The notes beneath the pieces are model-generated. The model was given only the letters and a program-made list of their open reading frames with translations, was not told the origin of the DNA and ran no database searches. A stretch of DNA of 64,000 bases from Siphonodentalium dalli (taxonomy: Eukaryota; Mollusca; Scaphopoda; Gadilida; Siphonodentaliidae), in assembly GCA_032622095.1 (NCBI GenBank), contig CP136068.1, forward strand, positions 53,900,025 through 53,964,024, in the 5' to 3' direction. Every line of letters begins with the position of its first letter. The stretch's first letter is position 1. The position numbers were made by a program, and so were the translations under genes. Of this stretch, positions 12,565 to 43,800 are shown piece by piece.

Positions 12565-12705
12565 CTAATTGTAGAATATAAAATATATTGGTTTTGCGAA
12601 TGACCAACTCAGAATTCCGTTAAAATAACAATAACAACCAGCACCTAATTAACGAACCGGCGGCCGACTCGACCGTCTCCGATCACAGCCCCCAGTGGGC
12701 TGCAG
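12565..12705 (+). repeat. Direct repeat, left copy (partner 23838-23978)
   Basis: About 140 bp from 'tagaatataaaatatattgg' through 'aacgaaccggcgg' to 'gtgggctgcagaa' recurs in the same orientation at 23838-23978 with roughly 90% identity by eye. The two copies bracket the palindromic element but lie more than 1 kb outside its ends. Confidence 0.85.
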
Positions 12706-13212
12706 AAATTCCTTTTATTTGGAATTGACATATAGTTTATCACAAACCAGAAATCAACATCAATCAACGTTGATTATAACGACAATAAACGAAATTGAAA
12801 TTCCCCAACTACACCTTTTACGGGACTCGGCCTCCAGCTCGCAGTTTGACTTTTAATCATCCCGAAAATTCCCATTCTATAAATAAAACTAATAAAACAC
12901 CCATTGATAATGTCAGCCCCCACGAGAAACGATAAACTCCCCACCAGTTATACACGCGGCGCGCGTAACTATGATGTAATTATGGGGGTATATTTCGATG
13001 GACGCGTTGTACAGGAATTTAGCTACCGGTGATATCTCATCCCAAACCGAACAGCGAGAAATTTTGTTCTAAAATGTGGTCTGAAGTATGAAAGAACCAT
13101 GCTAAATAAAGTGTCATCATTGGAAAATATCTGTACAAACAGGGCGATACTAAACTGAATGGGTATAACTAAGTGAGTATATCATCTTCCGACCTATACA
13201 CTAAATAGATGA
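12706..13212. other. No recognisable feature
   Basis: Mixed-composition DNA; no reading frame above 60 codons and no repeat partner found. Confidence 0.4.
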
Positions 13213-13665: not shown

Positions 13666-13671
13666 GTTACA
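13666..13671. repeat. Target-site duplication GTTACA, left
   Basis: The six bases GTTACA directly precede the first base of the palindromic element and are repeated exactly after its last base at 22527-22532. A 6-bp duplication is typical of Polinton/Maverick integration. Confidence 0.85.
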
Positions 13672-13739
13672 AGAAGAATAGGGGGCTCGTTGGTGTCACA
13701 TCTAAAAATAGAATTTGTGGGTCAAAAATTGGTTGTACT

Positions 13740-13925
13740 AAAATATTCCCAAAATATCAAAAACCCAAAAATTATTTTTCCAAAAAAAAATTTCAAAACT
13801 GCCAAAATTTATTTTTTCCAAAAAATTTCAAAACTTCCAAAAAATTTCAAAACCCCAAAATTTCAAAAGAAAAAATTTCAAAACCCTCAAAATTATTTCT
13901 CTAAAAAAAAAGTTTAAATAAAAAT
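13740..13925. repeat. A-rich simple repeat at left end of palindromic element (mirrored at 22270-22460)
   Basis: Imperfect 'ccaaaatttcaaaa' units make up this stretch. The mirrored stretch in the right arm has the complementary T-rich sequence. Reading frames in it give Lys/Asn/Phe-rich low-complexity peptides and are not genes. Confidence 0.8.
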
Positions 13926-14710
13926 TTTATAACGAGTTTTCGGTTTCTGATAATCTCGATATTAAAATGTCGAATGTTAAATTATTTGCGCGTAATATCT
14001 TTCGTTATTTTTTTTGTTCAAATATTTTTCATGAATTTATTAATCGATGTTTAGAAAATAGCTTTATTGGACATTGTGACCATCGATATGAATGCATACA
14101 TTCCAGTGTTTATCGGACGCAGTTCATATAATTGTCATACCTGAAAATAGACACCATTACTTTTACATAAATAATAAAGAGCGTTTATTCTTTACACTCT
14201 CTCTACCCCAGATGAAGTTATTGAGTATATGACAGGTGTGTATTATCGTGAATTATTGGAAGTATTGAGATGTACTATGTTGAATCACTAACGGTCGAAA
14301 ATTGTAATGTGAAATTACAACCCTCCAGAATGAATTGTCATATTCGCTGGAACATATTTTCAAGTAATCACACGCGACATTGGTGGTAACAATGTGTCTT
14401 TCACACCTTTGCTTTACCAAATGAATTATATTATTTCCCCGGTCACAGTTATATGCTATTCAGAAAACATATCGATTTAATGTCTGAACAAACGGGTTAG
14501 TATCAATTAAGGTTGATAAACTGTGTCATTGTTAGCATTAACACGATAATTAGTTATCCAAAACATGCATACATATTACGTCCAGGTCACTCAATTATAG
14601 AAATTGCTTCGGTGTCATTGTTATAACAACATTACGTAATAACCACTTATCACTCCATTCACACTTACGATCATTTTGTATACCAAAAATTTCAATATAA
14701 TGAAGATGAC

Positions 14711-14920
14711 GAAAAGTTACCTATAATTCTGCTGTGGTTAAGCCACAACAACAACAACAACAACACCAACAACAACAACAACAACAACAACAGTCACCAA
14801 GCGACATAACATCCTGTTTTGATGATCCAATGGCCAATGTCCATGAAGATTTTATTTCCGATGCAAGTCATATTTCAGACTAACTCCTGAAAAGTTACCT
14901 ATAATTCTGCTGTGGTTAAG
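14711..14920 (+). pseudogene. Displaced fragment of the ATPase gene inside the left arm
   Basis: Positions 14746-14858 repeat a small piece of the ATPase gene in plus orientation. It covers the end of the polyQ tract through the junction reading PSDITSCFDDPMANVHEDFI. The piece is bracketed by two direct copies of the 32-bp motif 'gaaaagttacct...ggttaag' (14711-14742 and 14889-14920). The mirrored fragment is at about 21343-21453 in the right arm, so the rearrangement existed before the arms were duplicated. Too short to function. Confidence 0.8.
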
Positions 14921-14950
14921 CAGTCCATTATTTAGGGCATACCTGTATGT
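14874..14950. repeat. Internal copy of the centre-proximal sequence
   Basis: About 75 bp ('catatttcagactaactcct' onward to 'ccattatttagggcata') match the DNA next to the palindrome axis at 18186-18262 in the same orientation, and at 17930-18004 inverted. Each arm thus contains a second copy of its inner end, mirrored at about 21245-21330. Confidence 0.75.
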
Positions 14951-15114
14951 AGGCCTACCAGTGGATGAATAGTCTGCCGGAGAAGTACTGTGTAGACAGG
15001 TCTTGTCGGTAAGAAAGTCAGACGAGTAGTGAAGGCTCGGCTATTAAAACATAGTAATGCGATAGCGAACATCAAACGAGTCTGCGCACGCATATCTGTC
15101 AAAGGATACAATGG

Positions 15115-15202
15115 CAGTCATTGGTCAATTTATCCCCGGTGTCAGCTCAGTACAATAACAGTCATTGGTCAATTTATCCCCGGTGTCAGCTCAGTACACA
15201 AT
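15115..15202. repeat. 44-bp tandem duplication in left arm
   Basis: Two adjacent copies of a unit beginning 'cagtcattggtcaatttatc' are present, with starts at 15115 and 15159. The right arm carries the mirrored pair near 20992-21080. Confidence 0.85.
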
Positions 15203-15234
15203 CGGCACGAAGCCGGAGGTCATAATTACTCTTA

Positions 15235-15785
15235 CGAATGAAGAGCGTTGAACATATACGAAATTATTACACGAATGAACTGAAATTTATATTTCACATC
15301 TTACCAACAACAGATACAGACATAGTCATAGTGTTATACTATCTTACATGTACCCATGCTGTGACATCATTCGAAGGGGCAATACACTCAAGGAGTTAAA
15401 GTGACACGAAACAAGGGACGTGATGTAATATTGGTGTTTGAATCTTAAAGGAACACAAGACACTCTAAAGGGACACTCATTATGAATGAATGTTAACAAT
15501 ACAAGCGCACGAATGAAGAGCGTTGAACATATACGAAATTACTACACGAATGAACTGAAATTTATATTTCTCATCTTACCAACAACAGATACAGACATAG
15601 GCATAGTGTTATACTATCTTACATGTACCCATGCTATGACATACTTAAAGGGGGATAATGCACGCACGGTGTGGAATGTTAAAGTGACACGAAACAAGGG
15701 ACGTGATGCAATATTGGTGTTTGAATATTAAAAGGAACACAAGACACTCTAAAGGGACACTCATTATGAATGAATGTTAACAATA
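15235..15785. repeat. 275-bp tandem repeat in left arm (mirrored about 20405-20960)
   Basis: The unit beginning 'cgaatgaagagcgttgaac' at 15235 repeats at 15510. The units differ mainly by small indels around the 'atgacatcattcgaagg' / 'atgacatacttaaagg' text. Frames of 70-81 codons here are repeat translations without recognisable domains. Confidence 0.8.
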
Positions 15786-15965
15786 CAAGCGCAGTGGTTG
15801 AAAGTTAAAATGACAGATCAATATTTAAGGGTCAAATTTTCGGGCACTTAATGCACCTTTTATCATTACGTATCGTTTCTCACTCTACAATTCCCAATAA
15901 TCCACACACTCTCTCCCCCCAGCTTATAGATATATAACGAAAACGAGAATATCATGTTGATGAAG

Positions 15966-15971
15966 TTTATT
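15966..15971 (-). terminator. Polyadenylation signal AATAAA of the left ATPase copy
   Basis: AATAAA on the minus strand lies 6 bp beyond the stop codon of the left gene copy. The right copy has the same signal at the same distance. Confidence 0.7.
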
Positions 15972-15976
15972 GAAAT

Positions 15977-17433
15977 TTAATCGTCCGAATTGTCATCACT
16001 TTCGTCAGAAGTGTCATATGTTACGTCCATGAATTTTTCTAGCATCGGTTTGTACTTTAATATTGACATTTTCACTGCATCACATTCTCCATAACCATTA
16101 TTCAAATATTTGTCGACTTTATCCATGACTCTGTTGTGCAGAGTCCCATTGCGCAGCTGCAGATACGATACTATTGTCCAAGCATAATCATTCATAAAGT
16201 GTATCATATCTTTACTTTTAAGGTCCTTGTCAGCTTGTTCTTTTGCTTCTGCGTCTTTCGAGCCATTTTCCTTATACGTGTCCACTTTATCACTCCATTC
16301 CTCACGTGTTTTATCTCTACTTTCATCACACAAACTTTTGAAGTATTCATCTTCATTCAATTTAATTTCCTTATTCTGACTATCATCCGGGTCCTCAGTT
16401 AATTTTCGTTTTAACTTATTTTCTTGACACAAAAGCCCGCATTCATTACAAGGGTACGACATGTCTTCTCGAATGTTTTGACGGTTCTTCTTATTAATTT
16501 CATCGAGCTCACCAGGTGGCCGTATGTCGTTAGTATAGTCATTATGTTGACCCTGGGGCACAATATAATTATATGTTATGCCCTTCTGTTGACCAGGGAG
16601 TTCTCTGTCATCGTATTTCATCGCATTCTGTTGACCCTGGGTCTCAGTGTCTTTTGTATGTTTTTTCATCCCATTCTGTTCATCTGGGTGTTCTCTGTCT
16701 TTTTGGAGATTATATTTCATGCCATTCCATTCACCCCTATGTTGGTTCGTGTCCTCTTTTAGTACATTCTGTCGCAGACGTAATGTGTCCGGTGTTGCGG
16801 CTTTTAAATCCACCAGTAGGTAACCGTACGGTTCACTCGTCGCTTCCGAAAACTCTCGAACCATACGCTGAGGACATTCAGGATACATCTGTCTTGATAA
16901 TGTTGAAATTAATCCCTTGTCGATTGGGTTATTGAACAATACCAAATATTGACAATTTCGTCGTTGCGTTGGATCTTTGTTGTAGTAGAAATTCTGGTTC
17001 AAACTTATCAAAGATAAGTTCAAATGGTGACTTCCTTCGGAATGCAAATCATTAACTCTCTGGTCTTTTGATGAAGTTTGCATCAAGTCATCGAGTATAA
17101 CTAGATTTTTATACCGGGGGTTGATAAGCGAATCCAAGTTTGCTGGTATTCCTCGTATAAAGTTGACCTGAGGGGTGACGGTATACTTTAATTCGTCATA
17201 TAGGGGCTGCCAATATTTATAAAACCATATTATTCTGTCAGGTGCGGGTGATATTTTTGAGGCAGACTTTTGTAGTAAGGTTTTCACGAAGTATGTCTTA
17301 CCACAAGATGTCGGTCCACTTACACATGCCGTGAATGGATGCTTGAAAATAAAATCTTCATGGACATTGGCCATTGGATCATCAAAGCAGGATGTTATGT
17401 CGCTTGGTGGCTGTTGTTGTTGTTGTTGTTGTT

Positions 17434-17466
<33 letters not shown>

Positions 17467-17498
17467 GCTGTTGTTGTTGTTGTTGGGGGTGATGATAC

Positions 17499-17532
<34 letters not shown>

Positions 17533-17546
17533 GCGGCTGATGATAC

Positions 17547-17577
<31 letters not shown>

Positions 17578-17665
17578 CTGAAGGCGTGTGTTTAACTTTG
17601 ATATGACGCTTCAAACTATCTTGCCAAGCATAGACACTTAAGCACTCTTCACATTGATACTTCAT
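15977..17665 (-). pseudogene. Left-arm copy of zinc-finger/packaging-type ATPase, broken
   Basis: This is the mirror copy of the intact gene at 18525-20225. It retains the N-terminal C2H2 finger, the polyQ tract with YHQP/YHHP spacers, the P-loop domain (GPTSCGKT Walker A, LVILDDLM Walker B) and the acidic tail. Two lesions separate it from the right copy. A CAA-to-TAA change at 17432-17434 stops the frame inside the polyQ tract. A 42-bp deletion near 16434 removes 14 residues of the second zinc finger, including its His ligand. Translation could in principle restart at the Met at 17374 (465 codons remain open), which would give the ATPase domain without the first finger and polyQ. Apart from these lesions and polyQ length, the copy matches the right arm closely. 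So either the duplication is recent or the arms are homogenised. Confidence 0.85.
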
Positions 17666-17708
17666 TTTCCTATATAATCAGTGAAATCGAGCGTTCTTCT
17701 ATGCACCT

Positions 17709-17718
17709 ATATTTATAT
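17709..17718 (-). promoter_or_regulatory. TATA box of left ATPase copy
   Basis: TATATAAATA on the minus strand sits 44 bp upstream of the ATG at 17665, mirroring the right-arm promoter. Confidence 0.6.
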
Positions 17719-17745
17719 AGAACAGAAACAAGGGAAACGTGGTGG

Positions 17746-17759
17746 ACTAGTTAACTAGT
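17746..17759. promoter_or_regulatory. 14-bp perfect palindrome upstream of left ATPase TATA box
   Basis: ACTAGTTAACTAGT is a perfect palindrome 27 bp upstream of the TATA box and is conserved in the right arm at 18431-18444. It could bind a dimeric regulator; this is inference from symmetry and position alone. Confidence 0.4.
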
Positions 17760-17929
17760 TCAGGCTGTCGTTCACAACGTCTCTTAGTGTTGTTTGTACT
17801 GGATACAAATTTATCACATTAGCTACAATACAACCTACCTATCCAAATGTCAATGCAATTATGAGTGATTTCAATATGAACACTCTATTATATAGATATG
17901 TGTAACCTGGTGACTGACATGATGATACA

Positions 17930-18262
17930 GTTATGCACTAAATAATGGACTGCTTAACCACAGCAGAATTATAGGTAACTTTTCAGGAGTTAGTCGGAAA
18001 TATGGCTTGTTGCCATTCATCGGAAAGCTCTCGCCGCCGGCGGCGGCGGCATTGCAGTATTTTACTGCGGCGGCGGCGGCGGTGCCGCCGCCGCCGCCGG
18101 GGTCCGCCGCCGGCGGACCCCGCAGTAAAATACTGCAATGCCGCCGCCGCCGGCGGCGAGAGCTTTCCGATGAATGACAACAAGCCATATTTCCGACTAA
18201 CTCCTGAAAAGTTACCTATAATTCTGCTGTGGTTAAGCAGTCCATTATTTAGTGCATAACTG
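17930..18262. repeat. Palindrome centre: GC-rich T-shaped hairpin junction
   Basis: The arms pair continuously to 18070/18120 with the axis near 18095. The unpaired 49 bp between them contain two smaller self-complementary hairpins side by side. One is B at 18071-18080 pairing with 18084-18093; the other is C at 18101-18109 pairing with 18111-18119. The order A-B-B'-C-C'-A' is the layout of a T-shaped parvovirus-type terminal repeat. From about 18031 to 18160 the DNA is very GC-rich (GCC/GGC runs) in an otherwise AT-rich region. The stretch has no supported gene; frames here translate the GGC repeat as Arg or Ala runs. Confidence 0.75.
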
Positions 18263-18430
18263 TATCATCATGTCAGTCACCAGGTTACACATATCTATAT
18301 AATAGAGTGTTCATATTGAAATCACTCATAATTGCATTGACATTTGGATAGGTAGGTTGTATTGTAGCTAATGTGATAAATTTGTATCCAGTACAAACAA
18401 CACTAAGAGACGTTGTGAACGACAGCCTGA

Positions 18431-18444
18431 ACTAGTTAACTAGT
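18431..18444. promoter_or_regulatory. 14-bp perfect palindrome upstream of right ATPase TATA box
   Basis: ACTAGTTAACTAGT lies 27 bp upstream of the TATA box of the intact gene. Its conservation in both arms follows from the palindrome, so it is not independent evidence of function. Confidence 0.4.
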
Positions 18445-18470
18445 CCACCACGTTTCCCTTGTTTCTGTTC

Positions 18471-18480
18471 TATATAAATA
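18471..18480 (+). promoter_or_regulatory. TATA box of intact ATPase gene
   Basis: TATATAAATA lies 44 bp upstream of the ATG at 18525. A start near 18500-18510, about 30 bp downstream, would give a very short 5' leader. No splice sites are needed, consistent with a virus-like intronless gene. Confidence 0.65.
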
Positions 18481-18524
18481 TAGGTGCATAGAAGAACGCT
18501 CGATTTCACTGATTATATAGGAAA

Positions 18525-18711
18525 ATGAAGTATCAATGTGAAGAGTGCTTAAGTGTCTATGCTTGGCAAGATAGTTTGAAGCGTCATATCAAAGTTAAAC
18601 ACACGCCTTCAGAACAACAACAACAACAACAACAACAACAGTATCATCAGCCGCAACAACAACAACAACAACAACAACAGTATCATCACCCCCAACAACA
18701 ACAACAACAGC

Positions 18712-18748
<37 letters not shown>

Positions 18749-20225
18749 GCCACCAAGCGACATAACATCCTGCTTTGATGATCCAATGGCCAATGTCCAT
18801 GAAGATTTTATTTTCAAGCATCCATTCACGGCATGTGTAAGTGGACCGACATCTTGTGGTAAGACATACTTCGTGAAAACCTTACTACAAAAGTCTGCCT
18901 CAAAAATATCACCCGCACCTGACAGAATAATATGGTTTTATAAATATTGGCAGCCCCTATATGACGAATTAAAGTATACCGTCACCCCTCAGGTCAACTT
19001 TATACGAGGAATACCAGCAAACTTGGATTCGCTTATCAACCCCCGGTATAAAAATCTAGTTATACTCGATGACTTGATGCAAACTTCATCAAAAGACCAG
19101 AGAGTTAATGATTTGCATTCCGAAGGAAGTCACCATTTGAACTTATCTTTGATAAGTTTGAACCAGAATTTCTACTACAACAAAGATCCAACGCAACGAC
19201 GAAATTGTCAATATTTGGTATTGTTCAATAACCCAATCGACAAGGGATTAATTTCAACATTATCAAGACAGATGTATCCTGAATGTCCTCAGCGTATGGT
19301 TCGAGAGTTTTCGGAAGCGACGAGTGAACCGTACGGTTACCTACTGGTGGATTTAAAAGCCGCAACACCGGACACATTACGTCTGCGACAGAATGTACTA
19401 AAAGAGGACACGAACCAACATAGGGGTGAATGGAATGGCATGAAATATAATCTCCAAAAAGACAGAGAACACCCAGATGAACAGAATGGGATGAAAAAAC
19501 ATACAAAAGACACTGAGACCCAGGGTCAACAGAATGCGATGAAATACGATGACAGAGAACTCCCTGGTCAACAAAAGGGCATAACATATAATTATATTGT
19601 GCCCCAGGGTCAACATAATGACTATACTAACGACATACGGCCACCTGGTGAGCTCGATGAAATTAATAAGAAGAACCGTCAAAACATTCGAGAAGACATG
19701 TCGTACCCTTGTAATGAATGCGGGCTTTTGTTCGCAGATCATTATGATGTTCAGAGACACGTAAAAAACTGGTGTCAAGAAAATAAGTTAAAACGAAAAT
19801 TAACTGAGGACCCGGATGATAGTCAGAATAAGGAAATTAAATTGAATGAAGATGAATACTTCAAAAGTTTGTGTGATGAAAGTAGAGATAAAACACGTGA
19901 GGAATGGAGTGATAAAGTGGACACGTATAAGGAAAATGGCTCGAAAGACGCAGAAGCAAAAGAACAAGCTGACAAGGACCTTAAAAGTAAAGATATGATA
20001 CACTTTATGAATGATTATGCTTGGACAATAGTATCGTATCTGCAGCTGCGCAATGGGACTCTGCACAACAGAGTCATGGATAAAGTCGACAAATATTTGA
20101 ATAATGGTTATGGAGAATGTGATGCAGTGAAAATGTCAATATTAAAGTACAAACCGATGCTAGAAAAATTCATGGACGTAACATATGACACTTCTGACGA
20201 AAGTGATGACAATTCGGACGATTAA
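18525..20225 (+). CDS. Zinc-finger/polyQ P-loop ATPase, FtsK-HerA packaging type (Polinton/adintovirus-related)
   Basis: An intact intronless frame of 566 aa. Residues 3-26 form a classical C2H2 finger (C5, C8, H21, H26). Residues 31-75 are polyQ interrupted by YHQP and YHHP. The ATPase domain follows from about residue 88: Walker A GPTSCGKT at 107-114, Walker B VILDD at 179-183, and a downstream SLNQNF sensor-like segment. Residues 299-375 are imperfect Gln/Asn-rich repeats (WNGMKYN, QNGMKKH, QNAMKYD). A second finger of C2HC type is at C396, C399, H412, C417. The tail is charged and ends in an acidic DES/DD stretch. By family, such ATPases drive genome packaging in Polinton-like and adintovirus-like elements. 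I recall close relatives with the same tail (CNECG...QRH) in many cnidarian and mollusc genomes. The start is set by the finger and by the TATA box 44 bp upstream. It is the only gene of its element, diverging from the broken mirror copy. Packaging function is inferred, not shown. Confidence 0.85.
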
Positions 20226-20230
20226 ATTTC

Positions 20231-20236
20231 AATAAA
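20231..20236 (+). terminator. Polyadenylation signal AATAAA of intact ATPase gene
   Basis: AATAAA begins 6 bp after the TAA stop, which gives an extremely compact 3' end as in many DNA viruses. Confidence 0.75.
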
Positions 20237-21273
20237 CTTCATCAACATGATATTCTCGTTTTCGTTATATATCTATAAGCTGGGGGGAGAGAGTGTGTGG
20301 ATTATTGGGAATTGTAGAGTGAGAAACGATACGTAATGATAAAAGGTGCATTAAGTGCCCGAAAATTTGACCCTTAAATATTGATCTGTCATTTTAACTT
20401 TCAACCACTGCGCTTGTATTGTTAACATTCATTCATAATGAGTGTCCCTTTAGAGTGTTCCTTTTAATATTCAAACACCAATATTGCATCACGTCCCTTG
20501 TTTCGTGTCACTTTAACATTCCACACCGTGCGTGCATTATCCCCCTTTAAGTATGTCATAGCATGGGTACATGTAAGATAGTATAACACTATGCCTATGT
20601 CTGTATCTGTTGTTGGTAAGATGTGAAATATAAATTTCAGTTCATTCGTGTAGTAATTTCGTATATGTTCAACGCTCTTCATTCGTGCGCTTGTATTGTT
20701 AACATTCATTCATAATGAGTGTCCCTTTAGAGTGTCTTGTGTTCCTTTAAGATTCAAACACCAATATTACATCACGTCCCTTGTTTCGTGTCACTTTAAC
20801 TCCTCGCGTGTATTGCCCCTTCGAATGATGTCACAGCATGGGTACATGTAAGATAGTATAACACTATGACTATGTCTGTATCTGTTGTTGGTAAGATGTG
20901 AAATATAAATTTCAGTTCATTCGTGTAGTAATTTCGTATATGTTCAACGCTCTTCATTCGTAAGAGTAATTATGACCTCCGGCTTCGTGCCGATTGTGTA
21001 CTGAGCTGACACCGGGGATAAATTGACCAATGACTGTTATTGTACTGAGCTGACACCGGGGATAAATTGACCAATGACTGCCATTGTATCCTTTGACAGA
21101 TATGCGTGCGCAGACTCGTTTGATGTTCGCTATCGCATTACTATGTTTTAATAGCCGAGCCTTCACTACTCGTCTGACTTTCTTACCGACAAGACCTGTC
21201 TACACAGTACTTCTCCGACAGACTATTCATCCACTGGTAGGCCTACATACAGGTATGCCCTAAATAATGGACT

Positions 21274-21487
21274 GCTTAACCACAGCAGAATTATAGGTAA
21301 CTTTTCAGGAGTTAGTCTGAAATATGACTTGCATCGGAAATAAAATCTTCATGGACATTGGCCATTGGATCATCAAAACAGGATGTTATGTCGCTTGGTG
21401 ACTGTTGTTGTTGTTGTTGTTGTTGTTGTTGGTGTTGTTGTTGTTGTTGTTGTGGCTTAACCACAGCAGAATTATAGGTAACTTTTC
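21274..21487 (-). pseudogene. Displaced ATPase gene fragment inside the right arm
   Basis: This is the mirror of the left-arm fragment: polyQ end plus the PSDITSCFDDP...HEDFI segment on the minus strand at about 21343-21453. It is bracketed by the 32-bp motif at 21274-21306 and 21456-21487. Non-functional. Confidence 0.8.
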
Positions 21488-22526
21488 GTCATCTTCATTA
21501 TATTGAAATTTTTGGTATACAAAATGATCGTAAGTGTGAATGGAGTGATAAGTGGTTATTACGTAATGTTGTTATAACAATGACACCGAAGCAATTTCTA
21601 TAATTGAGTGACCTGGACGTAATATGTATGCATGTTTTGGATAACTAATTATCGTGTTAATGCTAACAATGACACAGTTTATCAACCTTAATTGATACTA
21701 ACCCGTTTGTTCAGACATTAAATCGATATGTTTTCTGAATAGCATATAACTGTGACCGGGGAAATAATATAATTCATTTGGTAAAGCAAAGGTGTGAAAG
21801 ACACATTGTTACCACCAATGTCGCGTGTGATTACTTGAAAATATGTTCCAGCGAATATGACAATTCATTCTGGAGGGTTGTAATTTCACATTACAATTTT
21901 CGACCGTTAGTGATTCAACATAGTACATCTCAATACTTCCAATAATTCACGATAATACACACCTGTCATATACTCAATAACTTCATCTGGGGTAGAGAGA
22001 GTGTAAAGAATAAACGCTCTTTATTATTTATGTAAAAGTAATGGTGTCTATTTTCAGGTATGACAATTATATGAACTGCGTCCGATAAACACTGGAATGT
22101 ATGCATTCATATCGATTGTCACAATGTCCAATAAAGCTATTTTCTAAACATCGATTAATAAATTCATGAAAAATATTTGAACAAAAAAAATAACGAAAGA
22201 TATTACGCGCAAATAATTTAACATTCGACATTTTAATATCGAGATTATCAGAAACCGAAAACTCGTTATAAATTTTTTATTTAAACTTTTTTTTTAGAGA
22301 AATAATTTTGAGGGTTTTGAAATTTTTTCTTTTGAAATTTTGGGGTTTTGAAATTTTTTGGAAGTTTTGAAATTTTTTGGAAAAAATAAATTTTGGAAGT
22401 TTTGAAATTTTTTTTTGGAAAAATAATTTTTGGGTTTTTGATATTTTGGGAATATTTTAGTACAACCAATTTTAGACCCACAAATTCTATTTTTAGATGT
22501 GACACCAACGAGCCCCCTATTCTTCT

Positions 22527-22532
22527 GTTACA
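22527..22532. repeat. Target-site duplication GTTACA, right
   Basis: Exact repeat of 13666-13671 immediately after the terminal ...TCTTCT of the element. Confidence 0.85.
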
Positions 22533-23837: not shown

Positions 23838-23978
23838 TAATTATAGAATATAAAATATATTGGATTCGCGAATGACCAACTCAGAATTCCGTTAAAATAA
23901 CAATAAGAACCAGCACCTAATTAACGAACCGGCGGCAGACTCGGCCGTCTCGAACAACAACTATCAGTGGGCTGCAGA
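23838..23978 (+). repeat. Direct repeat, right copy (partner 12565-12705)
   Basis: Same 140-bp text as at 12565, in the same orientation, with scattered substitutions. The flanking sequences differ on both sides, so it is a dispersed repeat rather than part of a long duplication. Confidence 0.85.
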
Positions 23979-24035
23979 ACGAAAAATATCTATATAAGTT
24001 GAAATATAAGACTTAAAATTATCTTTTAAATTTTG

Positions 24036-24938
24036 TTATACACACCCAGATGCAACATGCGATATTAAGAGTTTCAAAAGCGATGGTTATCCATAGAAAA
24101 TGTAATTAATGAGAAAACTGATTGACTGGCTGATACCCCAAACAAAATTCCTTATTGCGCTTAAGCGCAATAAGAGATTCCTTATTTCGCTTAAGCGCAA
24201 TTAGATTTTCCCTTATTGCGCTTAAGCGCAATAAGGGATTCCTTATTGCGCTTAAGCTCATGTCAATTTGGCATCCCATAGTTATATACAGTTATATAAA
24301 GAGTTAAGTTTGGCGCAGATAAATTCGAGCTCGGCTTTTTGATGATCGAGTTAAGGGGGGGGGGGGGGGGGCGTTACAGAGTTGCACATACTTCTGAGTG
24401 TGACTTGATAGGGTATTGGAAACAACAGGTAAATTATCTGGCGGGTCCGCTTGGTAAATTATAAATTTTTGCAATAAATATATTTTTGAGAATTGTTTCT
24501 GGAATTACATCACTTGACCTACATGTGGAAAATCAATATAAAATTAAAAAATAAATACACAAATATTATAATGGAACAAGTTCCAAGCGGACCCGCCAGA
24601 TAAATACATGTTGTAATGTTGTTTCCATGCAATAACACATCAAGTCACACTCAGAAGTGTGTGCTGTAACTTTTGCTCCGCAGATTTGCATGGAAATCCC
24701 CATTCGAAATGGTCACTTGACCTCCCCCGTAAGAAATGATAATAAACATAAATGTGAGAGACAGCTCGGGTTCCGGGCTCTATGTACATAATTGTGTTAT
24801 TCGGGGTATATACATGTTTAGAGTTAGTTTTGTTTGGGGTATCAGCCAGTCAATCAGTTTTCTCATTAATTACATTTTCTATGGATAACCATCCCCTTTG
24901 AAACTCTTAATATCGCATGTTGCATCTGGGTGTGTACT
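24036..24938. mobile_element. Nested foldback element, about 900 bp
   Basis: The outer arms, about 110 bp, at 24036-24147 and 24827-24938 are reverse complements ('acacacccagatgcaacatg' against 'catgttgcatctgggtgtgt'). A second inner pair at 24373-24455 and 24582-24671 is also inverted ('tctggcgggtccgcttgg' against 'ccaagcggacccgccaga'). Between them lie the palindromic 18-mers and a G17 run at 24355-24371. No coding sequence is present. Confidence 0.82.
24147..24258. repeat. Array of palindromic ATTGCGCTTAAGCGCAAT units
   Basis: Three complete or near-complete copies and a partial fourth of the perfect palindrome ATTGCGCTTAAGCGCAAT stand about 31 bp apart, each flanked by 'ccttatt' and 'aataagg' extensions that lengthen the stem. 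The core resembles the ATTGCGCTGAAGCGCAAT family at 55.9-59.3 kb. Confidence 0.85.
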
Positions 24939-28514: not shown

Positions 28515-31500
28515 TCAATCCAGTTCCTGATCAACAACCGTTTGCTCAAAATTCGTGCAAATCTCCCCACGACAATCCCCACAGGCAGTGACACACTTAA
28601 GTCCATTTTTCCGACAGGAACATTGATTTTTGCCACAAGGATTTCTTGACAACATTTTACAATTGCATCGAATGAATTTAAGAAGATGTTCTGGCGCTGG
28701 TTCTAGGTCAGTCATTGTTGGGATAAGTATTGACCCCTGCAGTTGTCATCCCCAATGTCATCAGCAACAACAACTACCTGTGATTTTGATGCTGATTCTA
28801 TGGACTGTGTGATGAGCGTCCCGTAGCGCCTTGCTGAGTAGATGTATAAACTGCTGCTTGTTCGTTTCGTTCGAAAGAAACACTTCTTTATTGTTGTGAA
28901 CCTGCATAATATCGGTCAGATGGACATCAGCACAGGGTTTCCCACTCTTCGCTGGTGCTCATGATCCTTAATCGGTGGTCCTTGCCCATAGCCATTGAAA
29001 ACTATTGAGCAAACACCATACTTGTTCTTAACATATCTTACATAATGTTCAACCACTTGTTTGTAGTTGCATTTCTTTGACAATTTAACTCGGTGGAGGA
29101 GAGCGCCACCATCGATGACAATAACTGCTTCCTTAGGCGATTGTATTACCTCGACACCCTCATTCAATGCATTTGCCAATTGTGCCTTGGTTGGTTTTCG
29201 TAGAGTATGTTCCTTGAACAGAGATGTTGGTACCACTGTCAGTTCATATTTGAAGTATTTGTCGATGTCTTCTTTTCGTTGAGCAATAGCTATTAGTCGT
29301 GATAACAAAACAGTGGGATTAATATCGACTCGGTTGTTTTCGATTTTAACTCCAGGTGTTAAATAACTGAGCGTCTGAACCTGCTCTTTTCTCCTTATAG
29401 ACGCATCGGCAACAACGACGTTATCTAACTTCTCTTGAATTTGTGAGCCAACCAACTCTGTCTCGTTGCAATTAATTTTGTCATCTGGACCTGCAATCAA
29501 ACCAGATGAAAGGGAAATGAGCCGTGAGTCAATTGGGTCAAACGGCGCATGCCCATCGAACCATTCCTGGATACTGCATACATCAGATTCGTCACGTCTG
29601 CCCCTAGATATGCTAAGGTCAACATGTTGTTCACTGTCTTGTGTTTTGTGTTTGTCAAGTCTGTCATTGCGCCGTGTATTTGGGCACACCTGTACATGCT
29701 ATAAACCCATTGCTGGCGTACCGATTCAGTTATTCCCCTTCCTCGCGTAAGGCCACCCCGACTCTTGATGGAACGCATCAAGACTTGCTCAATAACTAGG
29801 TCACTTGACAGTCCTGCCCAAAACCTACTGCTTCTTCGAATAGTATGAACACCATCCTCTATAAAACATTTGTATAACCACGGACATTTCTTGGGTGGGT
29901 CAAGCATCATTTGCAAAAACAAGCGACAGCTCTTCGCATAGTGCACGTGCCCAGTGGCGGCAAACAAATTCAACATGTTTCCAACAACTACTAAATGGAG
30001 ATTCCAATCTCCTGTTCTCTCAGCTCGAATAAAATCTTTCAACATTTCTATATACTCCATATACTGTAACCAAAGTTTGGATGTTCTTGGTTTCTCGCCA
30101 ATGTATGTCTTGTAATATAACATAAGTTCGTTCAATTTGAGCAGTTCTATTGAATTGGAAACAGCCGAAACTTGAATGGTCCCATCAAACACTTTTTCAT
30201 ACAGCTCATTTATCGCTTTCACTTCAGCCTGACTAAGCTTCTCCCCTTCGAAACTGGCAGTACCAGTTGAAGTGATTCTTTCGATTGCCGATTCTTCGAC
30301 ATTTGATATCGAAGGTACTTCGATATTTAACGTTGGAGGTACTTCAACATTTGATTTTGCAGATAATTCGGTATCTGATGTCGCGTTTGACCCCGCATCA
30401 TCGGCTGTCGACTTGGAAATTTCATTTGAATCCTCAGAGATCAATTCACCCAACAGCTTGTTAGTAAGGGCTCCGTCCACAAGGAAATTACCTCTGATTG
30501 CTCGCGATAATGCCTTCCCGGAAAGCACTGTGGCAACTACGTTTGAGCCATAATCGTTTTCAAGAGCCTCGTCTAACCCCGACCCATTCATCATGGTACC
30601 AATGTTACCCATGAAACTCATCATCAGATGGAAGCCGCCGAGTCTACAAACTATTCCAAGTGACTTGGCTTCAATTATCTCAATCGCTTTGAGCCAAAGT
30701 GGCTGGTCAAACGTCAAGCATGGAGTCACAATTCCCAACTGTGTCGCATGATTCTGAATATACATCAAAGTAGAAAATAAACAAGACTCATCTGATGGGT
30801 TGAGGTCTATTATCGGTAGAAAAAGAACTTCTGACTTGGCTGAAGGTTCTGAGCGATTTGAAGACAAGATGTGTTCCATGAATCAAGACCAGTTCGGTCT
30901 ATGCTTCATTGCTCGATTTGAAAGCCAACCGCAATGCCATAACAAATCAGTGTTCAAACCTGGAGGCAGTGTGTATGGGTTTTGTAACTCAAGCATGGGT
31001 CGGTACTTTATTGTGGATAATCCCAGATTTGTAGGTTTCAAATAGTGTATGATAGGCACACCCTTGTCTTCGATTAGTTCTTCAACCACAACACGTTTGT
31101 GACGAGTGATCACTTTTGATGTATGTGTAAGCAGGGTATCATCCTTCGGAGTTGATACTGCGAGTATACCCATACCATGAAATGAACCTTTACCATCAAT
31201 AGTAGCGATGTTGTGGTCGACGTTATCTGCTACCCACTGAGTAAAGGTACCTGGAAAATACTCCACTAGTGTACTCTCAATACTTTCAACCTGGATCACT
31301 GATTGCTTGTACCTGCTTACTTCGTCGTAAGTAATTGAAAACCCCAATTTTGACAGTTCATCGACAAGCCACCTTGACCCGAACACGTGATCCATTTCAA
31401 CCCCAATACCAAAAAGTGTAGGGGCGATAACAGACCGGGACCTCGCAGATTGCACGATAATGTGACCAATGCTATTCTGTTTCATATCAGATGGAACAAG

Positions 31501-31814
31501 TATCTCCAGAAACATTTGTGAATGACGAGGAATCCATTTATTTCTGTTGTCAATATTCCGTATCTCCTCGCTGGTGGGGTAGGTTTTCTTATCATATTTC
31601 ATTTCCCGCAACTTTGCCCTAATCATCTTCACAACAATTATGTCTGCTTCCTCCTCTATGTCAGCTTTCTTATCCGTATACCACTTGTGATTTATCAAGT
31701 ACTTGGCCATATCTTTGAAGCAAATGACGTTGCTACGCCCTTCGACTTCAGCAAAATATATATACTCCCCATACCGTTATTCCAATTTCTGTTTAAGGCG
31801 TTTTATTTCGGCCA

Positions 31815-37825: not shown

Positions 37826-40800
37826 TCAATCCAGTTCCTGATCAACAACCGTTTGCTCAAAATTCGTGCAAATCTCCCCACGACAATCCCCACAGGCAGT
37901 GACACACTTAAGTCCATTTTTCCGACAGGAACATTGATTTTTGCCACAAGGATTTCTTGACAACATTTTACAATTGCATCGAATGAATTTAAGAAGATGT
38001 TCTGGCGCTGGTTCTAGGTCAGTCATTGTTGGGATAAGTATTGACCCCTGCAGTTGCCATCCCCAATGTCATCAGCAACAACAACTACCTGTGATTTTGA
38101 TGCTGATTCTATGGACTGTGTGATGAGCGTCCCGTAGCGCCTTGCTGAGTAGATGTATAAACTGCTGCTTGTTCGTTTCGTTCGAAAGAAACACTTCTTT
38201 ATTGTTGTGAACCTGCATAATATCGGTCAGATGGACATCAGCACAGGGTTTGCCCACTCTTCGCTGGTGCTCATGATCCTTAATCGGTGGTCCTTGCCCA
38301 TAGCCATCGAAAACTATTGAGCAAACACCATACTTGTTCTTAACATATCTTACATAATGTTCAACCACTTGTTTGTAGTTGCATTTCTTTGACAATTTAA
38401 CTCGGTGGAGGAGAGCGCCACCATCGATGACAATAACTGCTTCCTTAGGCGATTGTATTACCTCGACACCCTCATTCAATGCATTTGCCAATTGTGCCTT
38501 GGTTGGTTTTCGTAGAGTATGTTCCTTGAACAGAGATGTTGGTACCACTGTCAGTTCATATTTGAAGTATTTGTCGATGTCTTCTTTTCGTTGAGCAATA
38601 GCTATTAGTCGTGATAACAAAACAGTGGGATTAATATCGACTCGGTTGTTTTCGATTTTAACTCCAGGTGTTAAATAACTGAGCGTCTGAACCTGCTCTT
38701 TTCTCCTTATAGACGCATCGGCAACAACGACGTTATCTAACTTCTCTTGAATTTGTGAGCCAACCAACTCTGTCTCGTTGCAATTAATTTTGTCATCTGG
38801 ACCTGCAATCAAACCAGATGAAAGGGAAATGAGCCGTGAGTCAATTGGGTCAAACGGCGCATGCCCATCGAACCATTCCTGGATACTGCATACATCAGAT
38901 TCGTCACGTCTGCCCCTAGATATGCTAAGGTCAACATGTTGTTCACTGTCTTGTGTTTTGTGTTTGTCAAGTCTGTCATTGCGCCGTGTATTTGGGCACA
39001 CCTGTACATGCTATAAACCCATTGCTGGCGTACCGATTCAGTTATTCCCCTTCCTCGCGTAAGGCCACCCCGACTCTTGATGGAACGCATCAAGACTTGC
39101 TCAATAACTAGGTCACTTGACAGTCCTGCCCAAAACCTACTGCTTCTTCGAATAGTATGAACACCATCCTCTATAAAACATTTGTATAACCACGGACATT
39201 TCTTGGGTAGGTCAAGCATCATTTGCAAAAACAAGCGACAGCTCTTCGCATAGTGCACGTGCCCAGTGGCGGCAAACAAATTCAACATGTTTCCAACAAC
39301 TACTAAATGGAGATTCCAATCTCCTGTTCTCTCAGCTCGAATAAAATCTTTCAACATTTCTATATACTCCATATACTGTAACCAAAGTTTGGATGTTCTT
39401 GGTTTCTCGCCAATGTATGTCTTGTAATATAACATAAGTTCGTTCAATTTGAGCAGTTCTATTGAATTGGAAACAGCCGAAACTTGAATGGTCCCATCAA
39501 ACACTTTTTCATACAGCTCATTTATCGCTTTCACTTCAGCCTGACTAAGCTTCTCCCCTTCGAAACTGGCAGTACCAGTTGAAGTGATTCTTTCGATTGC
39601 CGATTCTTCGACATTTGACATCGAAGGTACTTCGATATTTAACGTTGGAGGTACTTCAACATTTGATTTTGCAGATAATTCGGTATCTGATGTCGCGTTT
39701 GACCCCGCATCATCGGCTGTCGACTTGGAAATTTCATTTGAATCCTCAGAGATCAATTCACCCAACAGCTTGTTAGTAAGGGCTCCGTCCACAAGGAAAT
39801 TACCTCTGATTGCTCGCGATAATGCCTTCCCGGAAAGCACTGTGGCAACTACGTTTGAGCCATAAGCGTTTTCAAGAGCCTCGTCTAACCCCGACCCATT
39901 CATCATGGTACCAATGTTACCCATGAAACTCATCATCAGATGGAAGCCGCCGAGTCTACAAACTATTCCAAGTGACTTGGCTTCAATTATCTCAATCGCT
40001 TTGAGCCAAAGTGGCTGGTCAAACGTCAAGCATGGAGTCACAATTCCCAACTGTGTCGCATGATTCTGAATATACATCAAAGTAGAAAATAAACAAGACT
40101 CATCTGATGGGTTGAGGTCTATTATCGGTAGAAAAAGAACTTCTGACTTGGCTGAAGGTTCTGAGCGATTTGAAGAAAAGATGTGTTCCATGAATCAAGA
40201 CCAGTTCGGTCTATGCTTCATTGCTCGATTTGAAAGCCAACCGCAATGCCATAACAAATCAGTGTTCAAACCTGGAGGCAGTGTGTATGGGTTTTGTAAC
40301 TCAAGCATGGGTCGGTACTTTATTGTGGATAATCCCAGATTTGTAGGTTTCAAATAGTGTATGATAGGCACACCCTTGTCTTCGATTAGTTCTTCAACCA
40401 CAACACGTTTGTGACGAGTGATCACTTTTGATGTATGTGTAAGCAGGGTATCATCCTTCGGAGTTGATACTGCGATTATACCCATACCATGAAATGAACC
40501 TTTACCATCAATAGTAGCGATGTTGTGGTCGACGTTATCTGCTACCCACTGAGTAAAGGTACCTGGAAAATACTCCACTAGTGTACTCTCAATACTTTCA
40601 ACCTGGATCACTGATTGCTTGTACCTGCTTACTTCGTCGTAAGTAATTGAAAACCCCAATTTTGACAGTTCATCGACAAGCCACCTTGACCCGAACACGT
40701 GATCCATTTCAACCCCAATACCAAAAAGTGTAGGGGCGATAACAGACCGGGACCTCGCAGATTGCACGATAATGTGACCAATGCTATTCTGTTTCATATC

Positions 40801-43800
40801 AGATGGAACAAGTATCTCCAGAAACATTTGTGAATGACGAGGAATCCATTTATTTCTGTTGTCAATATTCCGTATCTCCTCGCTGGTGGGGTAGGTTTTC
40901 TTATCATATTTCATTTCCCGCAACTTTGCCCTAATCATCTTCACAACAATTATGTCTGCTTCCTCCTCTATGTCAGCTTTCTTATCCGTATACCACTTGT
41001 GATTTATCAAGTACTTGGCCATATATCTTTGAAGCAAATGACGTTTGCTACGCCCTTCGACTTCAGCAAAATATATATACTCCCCATACCGTTATTCCAA
41101 TTTCTGTTTAAGGCGTTTTATTTCGGCCAATTTGGCCGGTTACTTCATGTGACTTTTTCATCTGACGTGTGTGTCGGATAATTGATCTGGAGGATTTATG
41201 TAAATGTTAGCCCAAACTACATTTCCAAGTAACGATGGTTTTGTTGTTTATTTTGAGGAATAATACCGCGTCAGATGAATTCAGCCCAAATATGTTAACA
41301 GTTGTCGTGTCAAACATTCGGCAGTAGGTTAGCGTTATTTAGTATTTGTGGATGTCCTTTAACATGGGGAAAATAGACTACTGCGCTTGAACGAGCATGT
41401 GAATTTGTCGTTTTTAATGTACAGCAACTTGATAATCAATAACAGAGGCATTCTCTGTCAAATATGGTCGCTCTATTTACGGTATTAATTGCGGAACTTT
41501 CTAAAGTAAACTACGCGTAAACGGATACATACGGTAAATTCTAGAATGTGCCGGAATCGGCCTAATCGCCCCAGGGCCAACTCGCCCAGTCGACGTGTGT
41601 CAATTCGGTACCTACTATAACATGTACCCGAGTCCGATACGGAATAAAAGATGTATACGGGTGTTATATAGCGTTTGGTCCGTTGTTTCTCAATGAATAT
41701 TATTGAAATTTGGTGTATATGTCCGGGCTGGGACATGGAATACAACAACGTTTGAATTGTTTTTAAATTTACAAATTTGTTGATTTTATTCAATTTGTTT
41801 TCGTTCTGAAAACACACTATAAAGTGTATATAATATAATAACGAACACGAGACATACATAATTTATAAACTGTTAACAAAAGATATCAAATTCAATACAT
41901 GACAAAGATGACTCAGTGGAGTTTATAAAGTGAACATAAAAACATTGAGGTAAGCATCTTTTTAAGGAATGCAACTTTATTTAATGATAATAAACACATA
42001 AATTAAAATAACAAACATGAGACATACATGATTTATAAACTGTTAACAAAAGATATCAAACTCAATACCTGACAAAGATGACTCAGTGAAGTTTATAAAG
42101 TGAACATAAAAATATTAAGGTAAGAATCTTTTTAAGCATTACTAAACCGTTTAGCACAGACCACAGTCCACTTCACTCATCCGATCATCACCAAACTTCA
42201 TATTTATCTTGATATTGATCTATCAGATGAGAGCTATCAAATATTTTTTTAATTTCATAGGAAAAAATGGTCGCCAGCGGCCATATTGCATTTACGTTAT
42301 ATTTTATCGCGTCATGTCGATATCTAGTATTACTTAGAAATTTCACCTTTCCAGATTCATAATTGCTCCATTGACTGTAACAGATGAAATTATTCCCCTC
42401 TTCGGATAGAGTGTCACTGAAACTTTATTTTGTCAGACTGTCTGTATAATCACTGATTATATATGGCAATAATCTGTAATAAGATGTAGCACTATTTTAT
42501 TTTATATTTACATGCAGTGCTGTTTTTATACATCAATTCTTATCCCCCTAGATCATCATGTGATCGATCATACATCGCGCGAGGACCTGGTTGAATTAAG
42601 GGGGGTTTTATGGATCACTTCTGTCCTCAAGCTAGATTATACTTATGACATCTAATGGCATGTTTCTAACGTGGAGGGTTAGATATGCTTGAGAAACCAC
42701 CACTCTTTAATTCACACCAAGTTCTCAGCTGTCATGTTCGGATATTAGAACCCATAGCCATGATATATGGTTTATTTTGTGTATACTAGTAATATAGTTA
42801 TTTTCAGTACCTTTATATACCAGTACTGTGTATAACAATGCATATAAATTAATCCATGTATACATGTATATTGATTCAACGGATTCAGTGGTTTTGTCCA
42901 TCAGTCTATCAAATTTGCGGGGAAAACATGGCCACAAGCAGTACACCCTGCTAAATTTCGAATTTGAATCAATTGGCGCACCCTGCAGCCAGCTTTTATT
43001 GGAGAACTTTTTCTTATGTGGATATTTTGGGTCACCGCTAGATGTGAGCCATATTTTGTTCTCAAACTGTCCTTGTGAAGACATCACTGCCAGCGGTGAT
43101 CTTCAATTTTACTATTTTTATGGCTAAATAATTTGGTTGATCCTACAGACGACACCCCTTGTCCGATCGTCATCAGATTCCACAATTATCTTCTGGATAA
43201 CCAGGGTGAGAGTAATCTAATTTTCCCGAATTTCGTTAAAAAACATTACCACAGGCAGCAATTTGGTATCTTACTCTTTGATCCTCTTTTGCATGACTGA
43301 ATTGTTTAGCAACTGTACAGACATATCCCTCATCTGGTTTTTATATACATGTATATCTCTTCATGCGGATAGCCAGTATTACGTAGGTACTCCAACTTTC
43401 TGCATTCCTGTCATCATTTGAAATATAAATATTTACCTGATACATGCACCCTTCAAAATTTGTTTCGTCGTATCTATTTTAATGACCCGTGTGGTAATAT
43501 TGATACAGATATATTTGTCAAACATTTCTTTGTACAATATACAGGTATTTAGTTTGTAACTAAATTTAGAAATATATAATAGTAGCTCGTGGACCCCACT
43601 TCGTCCGGGATGTTCCCCTCTGATTTTCGGAGAAATGCGCGATTTAACCTTGAATTGACTATTTTAAAGGTGAAGGTCATGTCGGGGTCACGATTTGACC
43701 CGTCCAAAACACTCCCCGGACAAAAGTCACGACAAAAGTACCCGTCGAAATCCGCCCGGCTTTATACCCGATTTGACCTTGAATTGACAATTTTGAATGT

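What the first reader, a model, noticed from the sequence alone, without database searches (positions are those of the whole stretch)
13672..22526. Giant palindromic Polinton-like element carrying only a packaging-type ATPase
The element is an almost complete palindrome of 8.86 kb. Its ends (AG...CT) and its exact 6-bp target duplication (GTTACA) match Polinton/Maverick integration, yet polymerase B, integrase and capsid genes are absent. The only gene is an ATPase of the FtsK-HerA packaging group, present twice and facing outward. I know of no described Polinton form reduced to one mirrored gene with arms covering the whole element. It may be a parasite of full Polintons that supplies or steals packaging.
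Basis: partly seen in the sequence, partly recalled or inferred. Interest (0 to 1): 0.88.

Follow-up and report, generated by a model that had tools for sequence, protein, structure and literature searches.

The report
Palindromic satellites of a resident Polinton
An 8.9-kb mirror-image mobile element in what is probably a mollusc genome proves to belong to a large family of mirror-image elements that share their ends with full-length Polinton (Maverick) virus-like transposons and probably live off them.

Summary
It is one of a family. In its genome the terminal motif occurs 635+614 times (reversed control 0) and an ATPase 32-mer 227+208 times (control 0). Of 21 loci read, 16 have both ends and a perfect 6-bp duplication. 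Five short elements picked by their ends alone were all mirrored where sampled.

A 16.1-kb Polinton of the same genome (own ATPase, integrase, polymerase B, capsid-like protein, PC4, TBP; CCCGAC duplication) shares ~1 kb of end sequence, 83-95% identical in four of five arms compared. It lacks the zinc-finger ATPase and the T-shaped axis hairpin of the palindromes. Fast-changing 5+5-bp blocks in the ends match within elements (42 of 44) and rarely between (5 of 946).

Best reading: non-autonomous Polinton satellites, copied and integrated in trans, kept symmetric through folding of the single strand (inferred). Capture of helper particles by the element's own ATPase is possible but unproven; three of four other half-arms read show no ATPase core.

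The parts
13666..13671 (.). left copy of the 6-bp target-site duplication GTTACA
22527..22532 (.). right copy of the 6-bp target-site duplication GTTACA
13672..22526 (.). whole palindromic element, 8,855 bp
   Evidence: inverted repeats; ends
13672..13703 (+). terminal motif AGAAGAATAG-[5]-TCGTT-[5]-CACATCT; two fast-changing 5-bp blocks at positions 11-15 and 21-25
   Evidence: equal on the two arms in 14 of 14 elements; genome-wide counts
22495..22526 (-). the same terminal motif on the right arm
13672..14674 (+). outer ~1 kb shared with the terminal inverted repeat of the 16.1-kb Polinton
   Evidence: 88.6% (L030) and 89.6% (L031) identity
21524..22526 (-). mirror copy of the Polinton-like outer ~1 kb
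14745..14857 (+). extra fragment of the 5' part of the ATPase gene in the left arm
   Evidence: D9, I16
21338..21453 (-). mirror copy of that fragment in the right arm
   Evidence: D8, I13
15234..15793 (+). two ~275-bp tandem units, left arm (0-3 units counted in other elements)
   Evidence: D4, D13, D14
20409..20961 (-). mirror copies of the ~275-bp units, right arm
   Evidence: D3, D15, D17
18525..20225 (+). intact 566-aa gene: C2H2 finger, poly-Q, A32/HerA-type ATPase, second C2H2 finger, acidic C-terminal part
15977..17665 (-). mirror copy of the gene, broken by a stop in the poly-Q tract and a 42-bp gap in the second finger
18025..18164 (.). axis: GC-rich T-shaped hairpin (stem plus two side arms); palindrome axis near 18095
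   Evidence: DNA folding -101.5 kcal/mol, z -19; axis placed; stem motif near other axes

Best explanation
A non-autonomous (satellite) Polinton/Maverick element whose terminal inverted repeats have grown until they cover the whole element. Shown: Polinton-type ends and target duplication; ends shared with a full Polinton of the same genome; many copies of the terminal motif and of the ATPase signature; no other frame over about 126 aa in the element; matching terminal codes within elements; a recurring T-shaped hairpin near the axis. Inferred, in order: (1) polymerase B of the full Polinton copies it from its ends; (2) the displaced strand, self-complementary throughout, folds into a ~4.4-kb duplex closed at one end by the T-shaped hairpin, so it needs no partner strand; (3) repair or copying within this folded form equalises the two arms and lets one exchange change both arms at once; (4) the helper's integrase inserts the unfolded element with a 6-bp duplication; (5) where present, the zinc-finger ATPase biases packaging of the element into helper-made particles. 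Steps 1 and 4 are likely, 2 and 3 plausible, 5 speculative.
For: Ends and duplications: 16 of 21 loci have both ends and a perfect 6-bp duplication, one more 5 of 6. Helper: C8:54441875-54457985, 16.1 kb, CCCGAC on both sides, the same motif and code at both ends; its outer ~1 kb is 88.6-94.6% identical to that of the window element, L009 and L015, 83.3-84.7% to L012. Of 7 PolB positions on C1 below 149.2 Mb, 5 lie in motif-bounded elements of 15.6-17.4 kb, 2 in none of the 44 paired elements, 0 in a short one. Symmetry: first 32 bp equal on both arms in 14 of 14; over the outer 950 bp closer within than to any other element in 14 of 14, sister arms in 13 of 14; code equal at both ends in 42 of 44 C1 elements, shared by different elements in 5 of 946 pairs. 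Axis motif in the window, 14 of 20 fetched loci and 3 of 4 further half-arms, in none of the Polinton stretches L030-L033; T-shaped fold in 5 of 6 axes. dN/dS 0.08-0.33 in 19 of 28 comparisons with the window's right copy. A satellite half-arm carries a frame 76% identical to a protein of the full Polinton.
Against: No expression, particle or mobilisation data. dN/dS is 0.72-1.43 in 7 of 28 comparisons and 0 in 2, on very small dS; the window's own left copy is broken. L013's arm matches the Polinton end only in patches. Whole terminal codes overlap little: 4 shared, of 16 from long elements and 41 from short ones. The full Polinton's own ends also match each other, so matched codes alone do not prove whole-element folding. 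Core-arm tree: sister arms in only 12 of 18. The axis motif was not found in 6 of 20 loci (L011, L013, L014, L020, L025, L026). L057-L059 show no ATPase core in the half-arm read. Gene conversion after insertion could also equalise arms.
Confidence: 0.75

Rival explanations
1. Dead-end replication by-products: inverted dimers arising again and again when Polinton copying folds back, like palindromic defective adenovirus genomes (recalled), inserted once each and not replicating as palindromes.
For: Arms of an element resemble each other more than other elements; several lengths and gene contents; fold-back copying is plausible for protein-primed replication (recalled).
Against: The zinc-finger ATPase and the axis motif were not found in the Polinton stretches read, so the palindromes have a lineage of their own; 435 hits of the ATPase signature; dN/dS below 0.35 in 21 of 28 comparisons.
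Confidence: 0.15
2. The axis hairpin is a working replication end, as in parvoviruses: the active form is a ~4.4-kb monomer with a Polinton end on one side and a T-shaped hairpin on the other; the palindrome is its replication dimer.
For: T-shaped fold in 5 of 6 axes folded; in the fetched loci the stem motif was seen only within about 200 bp of the axis; arms equalised.
Against: No second large frame that could be a Rep-like nickase; monomers were not observed, though motif-bounded elements of 3.1-4.7 kb exist that were not read.
Confidence: 0.15
3. A cut-and-paste foldback transposon unrelated to Polintons that only resembles them at its ends.
For: Arms making up most of an element recall foldback elements (recalled).
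Against: About 1 kb of end sequence shared with a Polinton, same terminal motif, 6-bp duplications; a Polinton-derived frame in a sister palindrome.
Confidence: 0.03
4. Assembly artefact.
For: Long palindromes are prone to misassembly (recalled).
Against: Many loci on several chromosomes with different flanks, exact duplications, and arms that differ by up to about 2% or in unit number.
Confidence: 0.01

Closest known systems
Polinton/Maverick elements (the 16.1-kb element of this genome; vertebrate Mavericks, PMC8097293, passages seen)
   Same: AG...CT ends with a short terminal repeat, 6-bp target duplication, A32/HerA-type ATPase, ~1 kb of shared end sequence
   Different: No polymerase, integrase or capsid frame; terminal repeats cover the whole element; another ATPase type with zinc fingers; axis hairpin
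Palindromic defective adenovirus genomes (symmetric recombinants; recalled, search gave no such paper in its listing)
   Same: Linear genome with one viral end mirrored on both sides; helper-dependent; protein-primed relatives
   Different: Those are sporadic products; these are integrated, multicopy and diversified, with a recurring axis structure and a gene of their own
AAV/parvovirus terminal repeats (recalled)
   Same: GC-rich T-shaped fold with two side arms
   Different: Here at the centre of the element, with no Rep-like frame seen
Phage satellites and virophages (recalled; virophage papers seen only as a search listing)
   Same: Small element living off a larger virus-like one, possibly by redirecting packaging
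   Different: The supposed helper is a Polinton in an animal genome; packaging capture not shown
Foldback transposons (recalled)
   Same: Inverted repeats making up most of the element
   Different: Ends shared with a Polinton; no transposase seen

Membership tests
Polinton/Maverick (autonomous) | 5'-AG...CT-3' ends and 6-bp target duplication | tested here: met
   end motifs and 6-bp duplications as in passages of PMC8097293
Polinton/Maverick (autonomous) | protein-primed DNA polymerase B | tested here: not met
   no frame of that size besides the ATPase; of 7 PolB positions compared none lies in a short element
Polinton/Maverick (autonomous) | rve-chromo integrase | tested here: not met
   no frame of that size in the element; present in the full Polinton; the genome-wide integrase search did not complete
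Polinton/Maverick (autonomous) | capsid proteins | tested here: not met
   no frame of that size in the element; short frames were not scanned one by one
Polinton/Maverick (autonomous) | A32/HerA-type packaging ATPase | tested here: met
   Pox_A32 25.3 bits, cut-off 22.8; P-loop and DD motif conserved; 31% identical to the full Polinton's ATPase; packaging activity not tested
Non-autonomous Polinton satellite | ends shared with an autonomous-looking element of the same genome | tested here: met
Non-autonomous Polinton satellite | mobilised in trans by that element | not testable with these tools
   needs an assay
AAV-like hairpin end | T-shaped self-complementary fold | tested here: met
   5 of 6 axes folded; L016 folds otherwise; likeness to AAV recalled, not aligned
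AAV-like hairpin end | Rep-type nickase encoded | tested here: not met
   only the ATPase gene exceeds about 126 aa in the element
Packaging-hijacking satellite | own packaging factor in all members | tested here: inconclusive
   of 4 further half-arms 3 showed only a zinc-finger/C-terminal-domain protein and 1 an interrupted ATPase; the other halves were not read
Foldback transposon | own transposase or autonomous foldback partner | tested here: not met
   no such frame in the element; no search for a partner was made

The most novel reading that the evidence does not exclude
A class of animal mobile elements that are virus satellites in self-complementary form: palindromic Polinton parasites that replicate as a 4.4-kb duplex closed by an AAV-like T-shaped hairpin, equalise their arms each cycle, and use their own zinc-finger packaging ATPase (or a finger protein alone) to divert the particles of a resident Polinton.
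Probability: 0.3. Interest if true: 0.92.

Novelty: new variant of a known kind. Interest (0 to 1): 0.8.

Why it matters
It would be a large satellite population living off a Polinton in an animal genome, with the likely helper and the satellites side by side and, to judge by the closeness of copies, young. That makes it possible to ask whether Polintons form particles at all: a satellite with its own packaging ATPase makes sense mainly if there are particles to enter. It also offers a natural case of whole-element palindromes kept symmetric over many insertions, and a fast-changing terminal code that might mark helper specificity.

Tried and rejected
Chance palindrome and assembly error: rejected on many independent loci. 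Unrelated foldback transposon: rejected on the shared ends. Reduced form of the full Polinton keeping that Polinton's own ATPase: rejected, 31% identity. The second Polinton type (C6, ~1,312-aa polymerase) as helper: its repeats gave no match to five palindrome arms and its ATPase is 30% identical. Relatives in viral contigs (terminal pattern) and phage records: none. Genome contigs: one Polinton-like fragment, L029, ATPase 29% identical. Solved structures: zinc fingers and weak hits only. PHROGs: weak hits only. Rfam: none at gathering scores. Papers: searches (Polinton/Maverick terms; adenovirus symmetric recombinants) showed, in their capped listings, no title or abstract start describing palindromic Polintons; beyond listings I saw only passages of PMC4409740 and PMC8097293. 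Codes held a typing slip in block 1 (GGCGC for GCGCC); one search replaces them.

A first reading, that breaks lie at mirrored places of the window element, was dropped as evidence because the window element is itself a palindrome; distances from the two ends of the other elements are given instead.
Full report
OBSERVATION. The element at 13672-22526 is 8,855 bp long, begins AGAAGAATAG and ends CTATTCTTCT, and is flanked by GTTACA on both sides. Ungapped inverted arms cover nearly all of it at 95-100% complementarity; the axis lies near 18095. The + gene encodes 566 aa: an N-terminal C2H2 finger, a poly-Q tract, an ATPase that passes Pfam's cut-off for Pox_A32 (25.3 bits, cut-off 22.8), a second C2H2 finger and an acidic C-terminal part. 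The P-loop (GPTxxGK[ST], with few exceptions) and the DD of Walker B are conserved in 23 aligned proteins. The mirror gene is broken. In four gene models of Mya and Mytilus coruscus the same ATPase is followed by a chromo domain (P0065, P0068, P0071) or an rve domain (P0089), so elsewhere this ATPase type probably sits beside a Polinton integrase.

A FAMILY. The genome (2.23 Gb, 9 contigs) gave 96 matches to the protein: 77 long ones and 19 N-terminal pieces, with only 77 of 7,598 first-look candidates scored. I fetched 20 loci of 10 kb, 12 chosen as divergent pairs and 8 as singles; with the window that makes 21. Sixteen have both ends and a perfect 6-bp duplication (window, L009-L019, L022, L023, L027, L028); L024 has 5 of 6; L020, L021, L025 and L026 lack a readable pair of ends. 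L023's left end bears one extra AGA triplet, as expected of slippage in a terminal repeat (inference). All 8 singles show mirrored arms; in L024, L025 and L028 part of one arm is missing. A 32-mer of the ATPase gene (up to 2 mismatches) occurs 227 times forward and 208 reverse, control 0.

THE ENDS. The motif AGAAGAATAG-N5-TCGTT-N5-CACWTCT occurs 635 times forward and 614 reverse, control 0. Only the first 100 places are listed, all on C1. They give 44 paired elements: 10 of 15.6-17.4 kb and 34 of 3.1-11.1 kb; five unpaired places, one extra left end and a six-place array were set aside. Five short elements of 7.8-10.5 kb, chosen by their ends alone, were sampled at two mirror spots of 500 bp: 5 of 5 are mirror-symmetric, 97.5-100% identical, besides a repeat-shifted secondary match of 84%. 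The two 5-bp blocks are equal at both ends in 42 of 44 elements, whereas different elements share both in 5 of 946 pairs. A subfamily (L013, L026) ends AGTAGT, the (AGT)2 motif reported for vertebrate Mavericks together with perfect 6-bp duplications (PMC8097293, passages).

THE FULL POLINTON. PF03175 finds 149 stretches, 69 of 1,596 candidates scored: a ~952-aa polymerase type in dozens of copies and a ~1,312-1,330-aa type in about eleven. One of the first type was read in two separate halves, L031 and L030 (C8:54441875-54457985, 16.1 kb). CCCGAC flanks both ends, and both ends carry the same motif and code. Frames: an ATPase of 221 aa; an integrase with rve (5e-15) and chromo (2e-7); a 146-aa protein; a 145-aa and a 420-aa protein with 34% and 30% matches to frames of the second Polinton; polymerase B (1.7e-51); PC4 (4.5e-15); TBP (2.9e-32). 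That the 420-aa protein is the capsid protein and the 145-aa one penton-like is recalled from Polinton gene order and sequence; Pfam gave no capsid hit. Its outer ~1 kb is 88.6-94.6% identical to that of the window element, L009 and L015, 83.3-84.7% to L012, and matches L013 in patches only. Its ATPase is 31% identical to the palindrome's. Seven PolB positions on C1 below 149.2 Mb were compared with the 44 elements: five lie in elements of 15.6-17.4 kb, two (137917395, of the larger type, and 125665140) in none, and none in a short element. Of 12 further Polinton ends fetched by estimate, 8 showed the motif; the other 4 stretches missed it.

SYMMETRY. In 14 elements the first 32 bp agree exactly on both arms (14 of 14), while 2 of 91 pairs of elements share both variable blocks. 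Over the outer 950 bp the arms of an element are closer to each other than to any other arm in 14 of 14, and sisters in 13 of 14; over the ATPase core they are sisters in 12 of 18 and closest to each other, ties counted, in 10 of 18. Numbers of ~275-bp units agree between arms in 14 of 15 elements (L023: 1 and 2), and the extra ATPase fragment is in both arms in the 3 of 15 that have it. Where close similarity to the window element begins, the distance from the left and right end is 1185/1185 bp in L009, 1104/1103 in L010, 1639/1639 in L014, 1601/1601 in L015 and 1425/1410 in L016. All this suggests that both arms change together, most simply in a folded molecule (inference). The full Polinton's two ends match each other too, so equalisation of ends may be general and merely extend over the whole palindrome.

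THE AXIS. As single-stranded DNA the axis folds into a stem with two side arms in the window (-101.5 kcal/mol, z -19), L009, L017, L019 and L027; L016 folds otherwise (5 of the 6 folded). The stem motif, on one side or both, lies within about 200 bp of the axis in the window and 14 of 20 fetched loci, and in 3 of 4 further half-arms; it was not found in L011, L013, L014, L020, L025, L026 and L057, nor in the Polinton stretches L030-L033. Likeness to AAV terminal repeats is recalled, not tested against a sequence.

OTHER GENE CONTENTS. Four more half-arms were read. L056 carries the ATPase gene, interrupted, in an element whose sampled C-terminal part is of the other type (26% identity). L057, L058 and L059 show only a protein with one C2H2 finger and a C-terminal domain 22% identical to that of the ATPase protein. 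DNA of L057 and L059 is 82-83% identical to a stretch of the full Polinton just before its 420-aa frame, and a frame of L057 is 76% identical to the 109-aa frame there. So the ATPase is not the constant feature; ends, symmetry, often the axis hairpin, and a finger protein are.

SELECTION. Against the window's right copy, 28 natural copies (of 34 frames, 29 long enough including the reference) gave dN/dS of 0.08-0.33 in 19, 0 in 2 and 0.72-1.43 in 7, all with dS of at most 0.033. This favours past constraint but is weak evidence.

VERDICT. A real, large and apparently young family of palindromic non-autonomous Polintons beside a plausible helper. Mobilisation in trans and the folded replication form are well motivated but not shown; capture of packaging is an open, testable idea. 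I found no description of such elements in the capped listings of searches, which cover open-access papers only.

Noticed in passing
L030:492-1639: The 16.1-kb Polinton encodes a TATA-binding protein and a PC4-like coactivator, an unusual pair for such an element as far as I recall.
   Followed up: no
G000:C1:159746518-159773514: Six copies of the terminal motif on one strand about 5.4 kb apart with one code: seemingly a head-to-tail array; the listing stops there, so it may go on.
   Followed up: no
G000:C6:96909422-96923310 (L032, L033): A second Polinton type with ~527-bp repeats unrelated to the palindromes' ends: integrase, ATPase and ~1,312-aa polymerase, plus frames matching the 420-aa and 145-aa proteins of the first Polinton. 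Its target duplication was not checked.
   Followed up: partly
L033:5690-5910: Outside that second Polinton, a ~220-bp small palindrome made of the sequence that lies near the axis of the ATPase palindromes (89-90% identity).
   Followed up: no
window 28916-31776 and 38072-41091: Two nearly identical multi-frame units on the - strand about 9.3 kb apart, unidentified.
   Followed up: no
window 12566-12707 and 23838-23979: A 142-bp direct repeat (90%) on either side of the element, and short hairpin units CCTTATTGCGCTTAAGCGCAATAAG at 24120-24269.
   Followed up: no
L029: A MAG contig labelled Gammaproteobacteria carries an rve-type frame and an A32-like ATPase frame, a Polinton-like fragment: probable contamination of the bin.
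   Followed up: partly
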